Positions 21,075-23,312 of a stretch of DNA of 34,886 bases are shown piece by piece. Source of the stretch: Natrinema thermotolerans DSM 11552 (GTDB taxonomy: Archaea; Halobacteriota; Halobacteria; Halobacteriales; Natrialbaceae); contig AOIR01000034.1 of assembly GCA_000337115.1 (NCBI GenBank), positions 26,131-61,016 on the forward strand, read 5' to 3'. Each line of letters begins with the position of its first letter. Positions within the stretch are counted from its first letter, which is position 1. The notes under the pieces are model-generated. The model was not told the DNA's origin. It saw only the letters and a program-made list of their open reading frames with translations, and made no database searches. Both the position numbers and the translations under genes were made by a program.

Positions 21075-21407
21075 TTACTTCCACGGGTTGTCCACCAGTT
21101 CCGTGTGAACGCTCGAGCCGACCGCGATCCGACAGTCGGCCCGCGGCGCGGCGAGACACAGCAGGACGTAGCCGTTCGACAGGTGTCGATCCTTCAGGGC
21201 TCGAGGCCGTCGGCGGTGCGCGAGGGCATCGTCGGCGGCACCCTCGAGTAGCCGCCCCGTACAGGTCCCGCAGGCACCGGTGCGACAGCCGAACGGAAGT
21301 CCGATATCGTTCCGTTCGGCCGCCTCGAGGACCGTCTCGCCCTCGCGAACCTCGATGGTTCGAATGCGGCCGTCGGGCCACTCGAGGGTCACGTCGTGGC
21401 TCGTCAT
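21075..21407 (-). CDS. 2Fe-2S ferredoxin (copy downstream of SBP56)
   Basis: A 110-residue plant-type [2Fe-2S] ferredoxin. Cluster ligands are Cys41, Cys46, Cys49 (CRTGACGTC) and Cys84 (VLLCLA). The beta-grasp opens MTSHDVTLEWPDGRIRTIEV and ends with SVHTELVDNPWK. It is the last gene of a same-strand triplet with SBP56 (16-nt gap) and a paralogous ferredoxin upstream, and the closing ...PW[K/A] end is shared by both copies. Likely an electron carrier; the partner enzyme in this cluster is presumably SBP56 or an enzyme elsewhere. The tail is shorter than in the long halobacterial ferredoxins, with no acidic insertion between the cluster and the last ligand. Confidence 0.93.
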   Translation of the reverse strand: MTSHDVTLEWPDGRIRTIEVREGETVLEAAERNDIGLPFGCRTGACGTCTGRLLEGAADDALAHRRRPRALKDRHLSNGYVLLCLAAPRADCRIAVGSSVHTELVDNPWK

Positions 21408-21423
21408 CTGCCGGCGCGGTGAG

Positions 21424-22836
21424 TCACTGCCAGACGTCGCTCGTGCAGTCGCCGTCGGGCCACCGGATCTCGTGGGCGCGGGCCGGTCCCTCGGGACAGT
21501 CGCCCCAGTCGACGAGGAAGTCCTCGTCGAGTTCCATCGTCCCTTTGCGGGGGTCGACGTCGGCTTTCAGCATCACCGAGCCGCGCTCGGCCTCCTCGGG
21601 GTAGAACTGGTCGTCCCACGAGGAGAACAGCGAGGTAGTCCAGTAGAGGCGCTCGCCGTCCAGCGAGAGCTGGAGCATCTGCGGGCCGCCGGCGAGTTCC
21701 CGGCCCTGGACCTCCTGGATCTCGCCGAAGGTGCCCCCGACCGACAGCGAGTCGGCCCGCCGCGGGTTCGAGGGGTCCGAGATGTCGTACATCCAGACCT
21801 CGCCGTGGAGCCAGTTCGAACCGAACAGGTACCGGTCGTCCATCGAGATCAGGATGTCGGTCGTCAGCCCCGGCACGGGCATGTCCCAGTCCTCGTGGTC
21901 GCGTGCCTCGAAGTCGATCACTTTCTCCGCGCGGTACGCTCCCTGCCCGTCATCCGCGCTCTCGTCCCGCCAGAAGTGGAACATGTTCGAAGAGAGCGCG
22001 GCCCCGACGAACCCGTGGGTCGATTCGGGCGTGTGAAGGAATCGCACCTCGAGCGGAATCTGTCCCTCCTCGCCGAGGTCGATCGTCTGCTCGACGGTGC
22101 CGTCTTCCCAGTCCCAGAAGTGGAGCTTCCGGCCGTAGTTACCCGCCTCGACGTCCTCGAGGTCAAAGCCCGGATAGTACGTCTTGGGTGCGGCCCACTC
22201 GCTCGAGACCATCACGTTCTGGCGGGGCTGGTACCAGTAGTCGTAGTTCATCTCGATCTCGCCCGGCGGCTCCCAGCGCCCTTCGATCTCGAAGTCCTCG
22301 TTCAGCTCGAGGAACCCGCCCGGAAGCTCGCCGTCGGCGTCGCCGAGCATGCTGATCAGGATCTGCCCGTCGGGGATACAGTGGACGGTATGGGGTGCCG
22401 AGAGGTCGTACTCGAAGACGTCCTCGGGTTCGATCACTGTCTCGAGTTCGGGATTCCGCCGGTCTTTGGCGTCGAGGACGTGGATTCGCGAGGAGCGTTG
22501 GCCGGGGACGATCAGGTGTCGCCGCTCGAGTTCGTCCACGTGACAGGACGACGAGCAGGCGTTCCACCCGAAGTGGTGGAGTTCGTCCCCGCGCTCGGGC
22601 ATCTCGACCCGGTCAACGATCTCGCAGTAGGTCTCGGAGTCGGGATCGAGATCGACGACCGCGACGAAATCCGGCGCGTCGACGTCCGTACCGACGTAGA
22701 GGCTCATCACGTACGCCAACTGTTCCCGCTCGCTCTCCTCGATCGCGGCCTGGGGCGTCGTGTAGCCGGGCCCCTCGTGGTGGTGTTCGTGGTCGTGGCC
22801 GGGTTCGACGTCGTCTGGCGTGCTAGCGTCACTCAT
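21424..22836 (-). CDS. Selenium-binding protein SBP56 family (methanethiol oxidase-like)
   Basis: A 470-residue SBP56/SELENBP1-family protein, a beta-propeller; characterised members are methanethiol oxidases that turn methanethiol and O2 into formaldehyde, H2S and H2O2. The hallmark HHFGWNACSSSCHVDE holds the reactive cysteine, with CSSSC instead of the usual CSSC. SRIHVLD, IEPEDVFEYDLSAPHTVHC and ISMLGDADGELPGGF follow, then ESTHGFVGAALSSNMFHFWR. The N-terminus is histidine-rich (GHDHEHHHEGPGY), a possible metal-binding lead; the family binds copper. The frame starts further upstream but ATG 22836 (MSDASTPDD) is more natural. It is flanked on both sides by paralogous ferredoxins on the same strand, which suggests a redox unit. 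Confidence 0.9.
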   Translation of the reverse strand: MSDASTPDDVEPGHDHEHHHEGPGYTTPQAAIEESEREQLAYVMSLYVGTDVDAPDFVAVVDLDPDSETYCEIVDRVEMPERGDELHHFGWNACSSSCHVDELERRHLIVPGQRSSRIHVLDAKDRRNPELETVIEPEDVFEYDLSAPHTVHCIPDGQILISMLGDADGELPGGFLELNEDFEIEGRWEPPGEIEMNYDYWYQPRQNVMVSSEWAAPKTYYPGFDLEDVEAGNYGRKLHFWDWEDGTVEQTIDLGEEGQIPLEVRFLHTPESTHGFVGAALSSNMFHFWRDESADDGQGAYRAEKVIDFEARDHEDWDMPVPGLTTDILISMDDRYLFGSNWLHGEVWMYDISDPSNPRRADSLSVGGTFGEIQEVQGRELAGGPQMLQLSLDGERLYWTTSLFSSWDDQFYPEEAERGSVMLKADVDPRKGTMELDEDFLVDWGDCPEGPARAHEIRWPDGDCTSDVWQ

Positions 22837-22896
22837 GGTACTCCCGACCACGAGCGGGTAGATAAATCTGGTCGGGGATGACGCGAGCGGACGGAC

Positions 22897-23268
22897 CTAC
22901 GCCCAGGGGCTGTCGCCGACCTCGGCGCGCACCCGCGGCCCGACCTCGATGCGACAGTCGGCCTGCGGCGAGGCGATACACAACAGGACGTAGCCCTCAC
23001 CTTGCTCGTCGTCGGTCAGCGCCCGCGGCTGCCGGCGATACGCGAAGGCATCTCTCACGTCCGGCCGCGCCCCGTCCTCCGCGTCCGTCTCGCCGTCTTC
23101 GAGCCCGAGCAGTCGGCCGACGCAGGTGATACAGGTCCCGCTCCGGCAGTCGTAGGGCAGTCGCGCGCCGACCCGCTGGGCCGCCTCGAGGACCGTCTGG
23201 CTCTCGGCCACGTCGAGCGTCCGCGTCCGGCCGTCGGTCCACTCGAGGGTTACCTCGTGGCTCGTCAT
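22897..23268 (-). CDS. 2Fe-2S ferredoxin (copy upstream of SBP56)
   Basis: A 123-residue [2Fe-2S] ferredoxin paralogous to the copy downstream of SBP56. Cluster ligands are Cys41, Cys46, Cys49 (CRSGTCITC) and Cys97 (VLLCIA). An extra acidic insertion (LEDGETDAEDGARPDV) between the cluster loop and the last ligand explains the longer length. The 60-nt gap to SBP56 and the shared direction point to one operon. A 15-codon frame upstream overlaps its ATG (see separate entry), so translation may be coupled. The start MTSHEVTLEW is the same as its partner's MTSHDVTLEW. Confidence 0.93.
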   Translation of the reverse strand: MTSHEVTLEWTDGRTRTLDVAESQTVLEAAQRVGARLPYDCRSGTCITCVGRLLGLEDGETDAEDGARPDVRDAFAYRRQPRALTDDEQGEGYVLLCIASPQADCRIEVGPRVRAEVGDSPWA

Positions 23269-23312
23269 CGGTCCGTTCCCGCTATCGTCCGTCGTGCGTA
23301 CAGTTCGTCCAT
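23265..23312 (-). other. Possible 15-aa leader ORF before the ferredoxin
   Basis: ATG at 23312 opens MDELYARRTIAGTDR and stops in a TGA at 23265-23267 that overlaps the ferredoxin ATG (ATGA). The 4-nt overlap would couple the two reading frames. No clear TATA box or Shine-Dalgarno was seen; the frame may be chance. Confidence 0.25.

What the first reader, a model, noticed from the sequence alone, without database searches (positions are those of the whole stretch)
21075..23268. SBP56 (methanethiol oxidase family) gene between two paralogous 2Fe-2S ferredoxins
On one strand the order is ferredoxin (longer, with acidic insertion), SBP56, ferredoxin, with gaps of 60 and 16 nt. Both ferredoxins share start (MTSH[DE]VTLEW), cluster motif and the terminal ...PW[K/A], so they are duplicates placed around SBP56. 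Characterised SBP56 enzymes are oxygen-using methanethiol oxidases that need no known ferredoxin, so a dedicated pair of electron carriers would be a new feature: perhaps an electron sink, a reactivation system, or a variant reaction. The active-site loop reads CSSSC, one residue longer than the usual CSSC.
Basis: partly seen in the sequence, partly recalled or inferred. Interest (0 to 1): 0.6.

Follow-up and report, generated by a model that had tools for sequence, protein, structure and literature searches.

The report
Selenium-binding thiol oxidase paired with ferredoxin
The gene for a copper-type methanethiol-oxidising enzyme sits beside a small electron-carrier gene not only here but in nearly every salt-loving archaeon that has it and in some of the ocean's most abundant bacteria, which suggests that this enzyme family, a relative of human SELENBP1, has a dedicated electron partner that I could not find described.

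Summary
In detail: on the minus strand lie FdA (2Fe-2S ferredoxin, 123 aa), SBP56 (470 aa) and FdB (2Fe-2S ferredoxin, 110 aa), with gaps of 60 and 16 nt. In 391 class genomes, every genome with an FdB-type ferredoxin also has SBP56 (122 against 0). All 80 bacterial relatives fetched (SAR11, SAR116, Rhodobacteraceae, Acidimicrobiales) have the same two-gene unit; the Sulfolobus-like SBP56 clade and Rubrobacter-like actinobacteria do not. FdA is a later duplicate, mainly in Natrialbaceae, with its own leader, and survives where SBP56 is gone. The copper-site residues of SELENBP1 are invariant; the CSSSC loop is haloarchaea-wide, already published, and not shown to be catalytic. Most likely FdB delivers electrons to a SELENBP1-type copper thiol oxidase (reductive activation or monooxygenase-like turnover). 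Partnership is strongly supported; the direction of electron flow is inferred. I found no paper describing the pairing.

The parts
21424..22836 (-). SBP56 / SELENBP1-like thiol (methanethiol) oxidase, 470 aa, no signal peptide apparent by eye, His-rich N-terminus, CSSSC loop, counterparts of all six SELENBP1 copper-site residues
   Evidence: Pfam SBP56 1.5e-200; 2ECE 8.6e-105; invariant copper-site columns
21075..21407 (-). FdB: 2Fe-2S plant-type ferredoxin, 110 aa, 16 nt downstream of SBP56; the conserved partner
22897..23268 (-). FdA: 2Fe-2S ferredoxin with acidic insert, 123 aa; mainly Natrialbaceae duplicate of FdB, separable from SBP56
22861..22866 (-). TATA-like element (TTTATC within AGATTTATCTA) about 25-30 nt upstream of the SBP56 ATG; probable leaderless promoter of SBP56-FdB
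   Evidence: conserved position in the FdA-SBP56 gap of relatives; no such motif before any FdB, 0 of 119
22843..22876 (.). Inverted repeat CCCGACCA ... TGGTCGGG (arms 22843-22850 and 22869-22876) bracketing the TATA-like element; possible operator
   Evidence: exact 8-nt arms also in L058, L151, L050, L060
23265..23312 (-). Conserved 15-codon leader ORF (MDELYARRTIAGTDR*) whose stop overlaps the FdA start (ATGA)
   Evidence: equivalent mini-ORF in 21 of 29 FdA loci, this one included

Best explanation
SBP56 and FdB form a two-component redox system: a cytosolic, SELENBP1-type, copper-dependent methanethiol/alkyl-thiol oxidase and its dedicated 2Fe-2S ferredoxin, co-transcribed and often translationally coupled. 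Most likely the ferredoxin donates electrons to the SBP56 copper centre, either to reduce Cu(II) to Cu(I) before O2 binding (priming and reactivation) or stoichiometrically, giving CH3SH + O2 + 2e- + 2H+ -> HCHO + H2S + H2O instead of H2O2-forming oxidase turnover. FdA is a later duplicate that provides a second, separately expressed carrier in Natrialbaceae. Shown here: conserved pairing, co-occurrence, co-inheritance, conserved copper-site residues, and bacterial gene context of sulfur, formaldehyde and copper handling. Inferred: physical interaction, direction of electron flow, and substrate in haloarchaea. My step estimates: functional partnership 0.85; SBP56 acting as thiol oxidase 0.75; ferredoxin as electron donor 0.5, acceptor 0.2, other role 0.3.
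For: Adjacency: 120/132 haloarchaeal loci, 42/43 genera, 8 families, 106 of 120 gaps at most 25 nt, 27 with a 4-nt overlap; no other neighbour conserved. Phylogenetic profile: 122 of 136 SBP56-positive and 0 of 255 SBP56-negative genomes have FdB at E<1e-35 (cut-off chosen afterwards). Paralogues: in four genomes with two SBP56-Fd pairs, each Fd's best relative belongs to the same SBP56 clade as its neighbour. Co-divergence: Mantel r=0.93 for all pairs, 0.48 in haloarchaea, 0 of 9999 permutations as high. Bacteria: 80/80 SELENBP1-like loci in SAR11, SAR116, Rhodobacteraceae and others carry the downstream Fd; in phylum samples the Sulfolobus/MTOX-like clade has none. Fd presence needs only 3 changes on an 85-row SBP56 tree against 26 shuffled. 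Context: rhodanese, persulfide-dioxygenase-like and enoyl-CoA hydratase genes (L177), formaldehyde dehydrogenase and PpoB2 copper chaperone (L176). All six SELENBP1 copper-site residues have invariant counterparts. Direction: plant-type ferredoxins are low potential (own knowledge), and the profile neighbours of these include oxygenase electron-transfer domains (BenC, MmoC, PaaE).
Against: Human and nematode homologues work in vitro with no ferredoxin, forming H2O2 (PMC10362175). A haloarchaeal SBP56 subclade (11 loci) and Rubrobacter-like actinobacterial SBP56s have no adjacent ferredoxin, so it is not obligatory for all relatives. No SBP56-Fd gene fusion was found. The linked-chain AlphaFold model was uninformative. 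No ferredoxin reductase is conserved at the locus. The substrate in haloarchaea is not shown by context. Whether archaeal and bacterial Fds had one origin is unresolved (AU p=0.25).
Confidence: 0.6

Rival explanations
1. FdB is the electron acceptor: SBP56 works as a thiol dehydrogenase (CH3SH + H2O -> HCHO + H2S + 2e- + 2H+), passing electrons to ferredoxin rather than O2, avoiding H2O2 and saving electrons.
For: Same pairing evidence. Would suit oxygen-poor brines and electron recovery.
Against: From approximate textbook free energies (own rough estimate) the CH3SH/HCHO+H2S couple lies near 0 mV, far above typical plant-type ferredoxins (about -350 mV), so transfer would be uphill. Characterised relatives use O2 (PMC10362175, PMC5739008).
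Confidence: 0.2
2. FdB serves maturation, repair or supply rather than turnover: it reduces a disulfide or copper during assembly, or is a spare ferredoxin made where copper, sulfide or H2O2 damage iron-sulfur proteins.
For: SBP56 loci elsewhere carry copper chaperone or transporter-like neighbours: PpoB2, ZIP-like proteins, SCO1 and MauG (PMC5739008). The Fd-less subclade has a ZIP-like membrane protein at the same position.
Against: A cluster that is itself copper- and peroxide-sensitive is an odd spare; the co-divergence and one-to-one pairing fit a specific partner better.
Confidence: 0.15
3. No functional link: SBP56 and Fd are merely co-inherited as a mobile pair.
For: Some copies are plasmid-borne and the pair is patchily distributed (136 of 391 genomes).
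Against: Persistence across two domains, in many genera with all other neighbours changed, frequent ATGA overlap, and absence of FdB from all 255 SBP56-negative genomes.
Confidence: 0.05

Closest known systems
Human SELENBP1 and C. elegans SEMO-1 (copper-dependent thiol/methanethiol oxidases; PMC10362175)
   Same: Same SBP56 family and motif pattern; the six copper-site residues (H73 H74 H137 H140 D189 E252 in human) have invariant counterparts.
   Different: No ferredoxin partner is known for them; the human loop is CSSC, the haloarchaeal one CSSSC.
Hyphomicrobium and Ruegeria MtoX (PMC5739008; PMC10936201)
   Same: SBP56 superfamily, copper, methanethiol.
   Different: Distant clade (NCBIfam MtoX equivalog score 114 against a cut-off of 650); operon partners SCO1 and MauG instead of ferredoxin; CCP_MauG family absent from this genome and 20 relatives.
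Sulfolobus tokodaii SBP56, PDB 2ECE
   Same: Whole-length homologue of solved structure (E=8.6e-105).
   Different: Has the CSSAL-type loop of a clade whose sampled bacterial members have no adjacent ferredoxin.
Ferredoxin-dependent oxygenase systems (e.g. BenC/MmoC/PaaE electron-transfer components)
   Same: A 2Fe-2S plant-type carrier encoded beside an O2-using enzyme.
   Different: No fused or adjacent flavin reductase; the catalytic component is a copper-type SBP56 protein, not an iron oxygenase.

Membership tests
SBP56 / SELENBP1 family (PF05694) | Full-length match to the Pfam SBP56 model | tested here: met
   E=1.5e-200, 667 bits, positions 2-452 of 453
SELENBP1-type copper thiol oxidase | Six residues required for activity (H73 H74 H137 H140 D189 E252 in human) | tested here: met
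   Counterparts H71 H72 H135 H138 D185 E249 (Phaeobacter numbering) are invariant in A1 and in A4, both of which hold the window protein. Equivalence to the human positions is by motif and spacing, not by an alignment with the human sequence.
SELENBP1-type copper thiol oxidase | Copper content and thiol oxidase activity | not testable with these tools
   Needs protein
MtoX equivalog (NCBIfam NF052453) | Score above the curated cut-off of 650 bits | tested here: not met
   113.8 bits
MtoX operon type | Adjacent SCO1/SenC and MauG genes | tested here: not met
   Not among the neighbours identified; CCP_MauG absent from the genome; SCO1-like genes exist on other contigs
Plant-type 2Fe-2S ferredoxin (Fer2, PF00111) | CX4CX2C plus distal Cys and Fer2 match | tested here: met
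Main halobacterial ferredoxin Fer (NF041393) | Score above 150 bits | tested here: not met
   43.6 (FdB) and 34.6 bits (FdA)

The most novel reading that the evidence does not exclude
Prokaryotic SELENBP1-type methanethiol oxidases are not simple H2O2-forming oxidases but ferredoxin-dependent copper monooxygenases, fed by a dedicated 2Fe-2S ferredoxin and used by haloarchaea and by SAR11, SAR116 and Rhodobacteraceae bacteria.
Probability: 0.3. Interest if true: 0.85.

Novelty: new variant of a known kind. Interest (0 to 1): 0.66.

Why it matters
How SBP56/SELENBP1 enzymes oxidise methanethiol, with what electron flow and products (H2S plus H2O2, or sulfane sulfur), is disputed. A conserved ferredoxin partner in archaea and in abundant marine bacteria gives a direct, testable reason why enzymes purified alone may behave differently from those in the cell, and would change how methanethiol turnover is understood in the marine sulfur cycle.

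Tried and rejected
1) AlphaFold of an SBP56-ferredoxin read-through chain (L191, TAA read as Gly): mean pLDDT 61, ferredoxin part mostly under 40; the alignment held only two linked rows, so nothing can be said about docking. An alignment with separate Fd rows was misaligned and dropped. 2) Search for natural SBP56-Fd fusions among fetched loci: none. 3) One versus two origins of archaeal and bacterial Fds: undecided. 4) Other conserved neighbours in haloarchaea: none; the repeated ones (DNA ligase, RIO1 kinase, antiporter, NDK, L7Ae, TmcA) are clade-specific synteny. 5) CSSSC as a marker of ferredoxin use: rejected, because ferredoxin-linked bacterial enzymes have CSSC and the haloarchaeal Fd-less subclade has CSSSC. 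7) The paralogue test timed out after four of seven genomes. 8) PpoB2 copper chaperone as a general partner: absent from this genome.

Full report
What is there. The minus strand encodes FdA (22897-23268), SBP56 (21424-22836) and FdB (21075-21407), separated by 60 and 16 nt. Pfam confirms SBP56 (1.5e-200) and Fer2 for both ferredoxins. The window lies in a draft genome (G000) that has one SBP56 and seven Fer2 places. Its genus is probably Natrinema: the congeneric genome G142 has a 400,082-base contig whose length and SBP56 position match the Natrinema salinisoli plasmid NZ_CP084470.

Is the adjacency conserved? SBP56 occurs in 136 of 391 sampled class genomes and 44 of 86 genera. I surveyed 132 loci with flanking DNA. 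A ferredoxin on the same strand directly follows SBP56 in 120 of 132 loci, in 42 of 43 genera and 8 families; 106 of these 120 gaps are at most 25 nt, and 27 are the 4-nt ATGA overlap (start codons were chosen by rule). No other gene family is conserved beyond clades, so the pair has outlasted the surrounding gene order.

Co-occurrence. A profile of SBP56-linked ferredoxins run on the same 391 genomes gives a hit better than 1e-35 in 122 of 136 SBP56-positive genomes and in 0 of 255 SBP56-negative ones (Fisher p about 4e-86, though the cut-off was chosen after seeing the data and genomes are not independent). In four genomes with two pairs, each ferredoxin's nearest relative belongs to the same SBP56 clade as its neighbour. 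Patristic distances of the two proteins correlate (r=0.93 for all 53 pairs, 0.48 for 40 haloarchaeal pairs, 0 of 9999 permutations as high).

Beyond archaea. Plasmid records showed SBP56 followed by an annotated 2Fe-2S protein in Paracoccus seriniphilus and Phaeobacter inhibens. A scan of genome contigs led by the Phaeobacter protein gave 80 loci (SAR11, SAR116, Rhodobacteraceae, Granulosicoccaceae, Acidimicrobiales MAGs); 80 of 80 have the downstream ferredoxin. This scan favours close relatives of its query, so I also sampled phyla: in Pseudomonadota the SELENBP1-like (CSSC) places have Fd, and the Sulfolobus/MTOX-like clade and the more distant ones have none; in Actinomycetota the two copies of G704 (an Acidimicrobiales MAG) have it, while the Rubrobacter-like and two other SELENBP1-like ones do not. 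On an 85-row tree the label 'ferredoxin adjacent' needs 3 changes (26 in shuffles). The bacterial Fds share with the haloarchaeal ones the cluster motif and a C-terminal [NS]P[FW], but a single origin is neither shown nor rejected (AU p 0.25).

Exceptions. One haloarchaeal SBP56 subclade (11 loci with no Fd, some of them plasmid-borne second copies) has instead a ~260-aa protein with several apparent membrane spans and ZIP-like HRxxEG/HAxxET motifs (the transporter reading is by eye). The ferredoxin is therefore not required by every family member.

FdA. FdA is immediately upstream in 27 of 132 loci, 26 of them Natrialbaceae. It also exists without SBP56: at the same DNA ligase-FdA-RIO1 site in L319 and L320, near SBP56 remnants in L321, L326 and L329, and beside an IscU/SufU-like gene in L322-L325 (these neighbours are named from the start of their sequences). 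In the window the 60-nt FdA-SBP56 gap holds AGATTTATCTA about 25-30 nt before the SBP56 ATG, bracketed by CCCGACCA/TGGTCGGG; relatives keep the AT element, and no such motif precedes any FdB. SBP56-FdB is therefore probably a leaderless two-gene transcript, and FdA a separate unit with its own 15-codon leader ORF (similar ORF in 21 of 29 loci). Transcription itself was not tested.

What the enzyme is. The window protein has counterparts of all six SELENBP1 residues whose mutation nearly abolishes methanethiol oxidase activity. In that work Cys80/Cys83 of the CSSC loop and Cys57 were dispensable, so the loop is not shown to be the active site; a study of Rhodobacteraceae enzymes does give conserved cysteines a substrate role (PMC10936201), and the matter is open. 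CSSSC in Halobacteria is already reported (PMC10277263).

Context for function. In bacteria the unit continues with a CoA-binding protein (80 of 82 loci), and, by lineage, with an enoyl-CoA hydratase, IclR regulator, rhodanese and sarcosine-dehydrogenase-like protein. In Phaeobacter it is SBP56-Fd-CoA-binding-rhodanese-persulfide-dioxygenase-like-enoyl-CoA hydratase-acyl-CoA synthetase; in Paracoccus, SBP56-Fd-PpoB2 copper chaperone with a class III formaldehyde dehydrogenase nearby. These fit an enzyme that releases formaldehyde and sulfide or sulfane sulfur and needs copper. An enoyl-CoA hydratase could supply methanethiol (DmdD-like), but NCBIfam gave no DmdD assignment, so this is only suggestive.

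Mechanism. The partnership is well supported by genomics; the direction is inference. My rough estimate puts the methanethiol couple near 0 mV (own knowledge, not computed with a tool), so giving electrons to a plant-type ferredoxin near -350 mV is unfavourable, whereas giving electrons from ferredoxin to Cu(II) is easy. I therefore favour donor: reductive priming, or full monooxygenase-like turnover. The CCP_MauG family, used by bacterial MtoX operons, is absent from this genome and 20 relatives.

Novelty. Searches for SBP56, SELENBP1, mtoX or methanethiol oxidase together with ferredoxin showed, in titles and abstracts, no paper describing the pair, and the key SBP56, MTO and SAR116 papers that I searched do not mention ferredoxin. 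The library lacks many subscription papers, so this is not proof of absence.

Noticed in passing
window 23265-23312 (-) and equivalent sites in 20 other FdA loci: Conserved 12-17-codon leader ORF whose stop overlaps the FdA start codon, usually as ATGA; sequence varies but length and overlap are kept, suggesting translational coupling from a leaderless transcript.
   Followed up: partly
L047, L055, L056, L062, L066, L069, L076, L091, L097, L103, L141: Ferredoxin-less haloarchaeal SBP56 paralogue is followed by a conserved ~260-aa membrane-like protein with ZIP-like histidine motifs and no Pfam family.
   Followed up: partly
L179, L180, L181 downstream of SBP56: Sulfolobus/MTOX-like bacterial SBP56 genes are followed by a ~210-aa protein without a Pfam family (membrane-like, HGMNPGMGWP motif, in L180); a Streptomyces copy (L182) is followed by a weakly ZIP-like protein.
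   Followed up: partly
L321, L326, L328, L329: Decaying SBP56: fragments or a split gene near ferredoxin genes of the FdA or FdB type, showing repeated loss of SBP56 in haloarchaea.
   Followed up: partly
L322, L323, L324, L325: FdA-type ferredoxin in another haloarchaeal family (f9) lies beside a RadA-like gene and an IscU/SufU-like gene, away from SBP56: probable transfer and a second role.
   Followed up: no
window 22843-22876: Inverted repeat CCCGACCA/TGGTCGGG around the TATA-like element before SBP56, exact in several relatives: candidate operator for an unknown regulator.
   Followed up: partly
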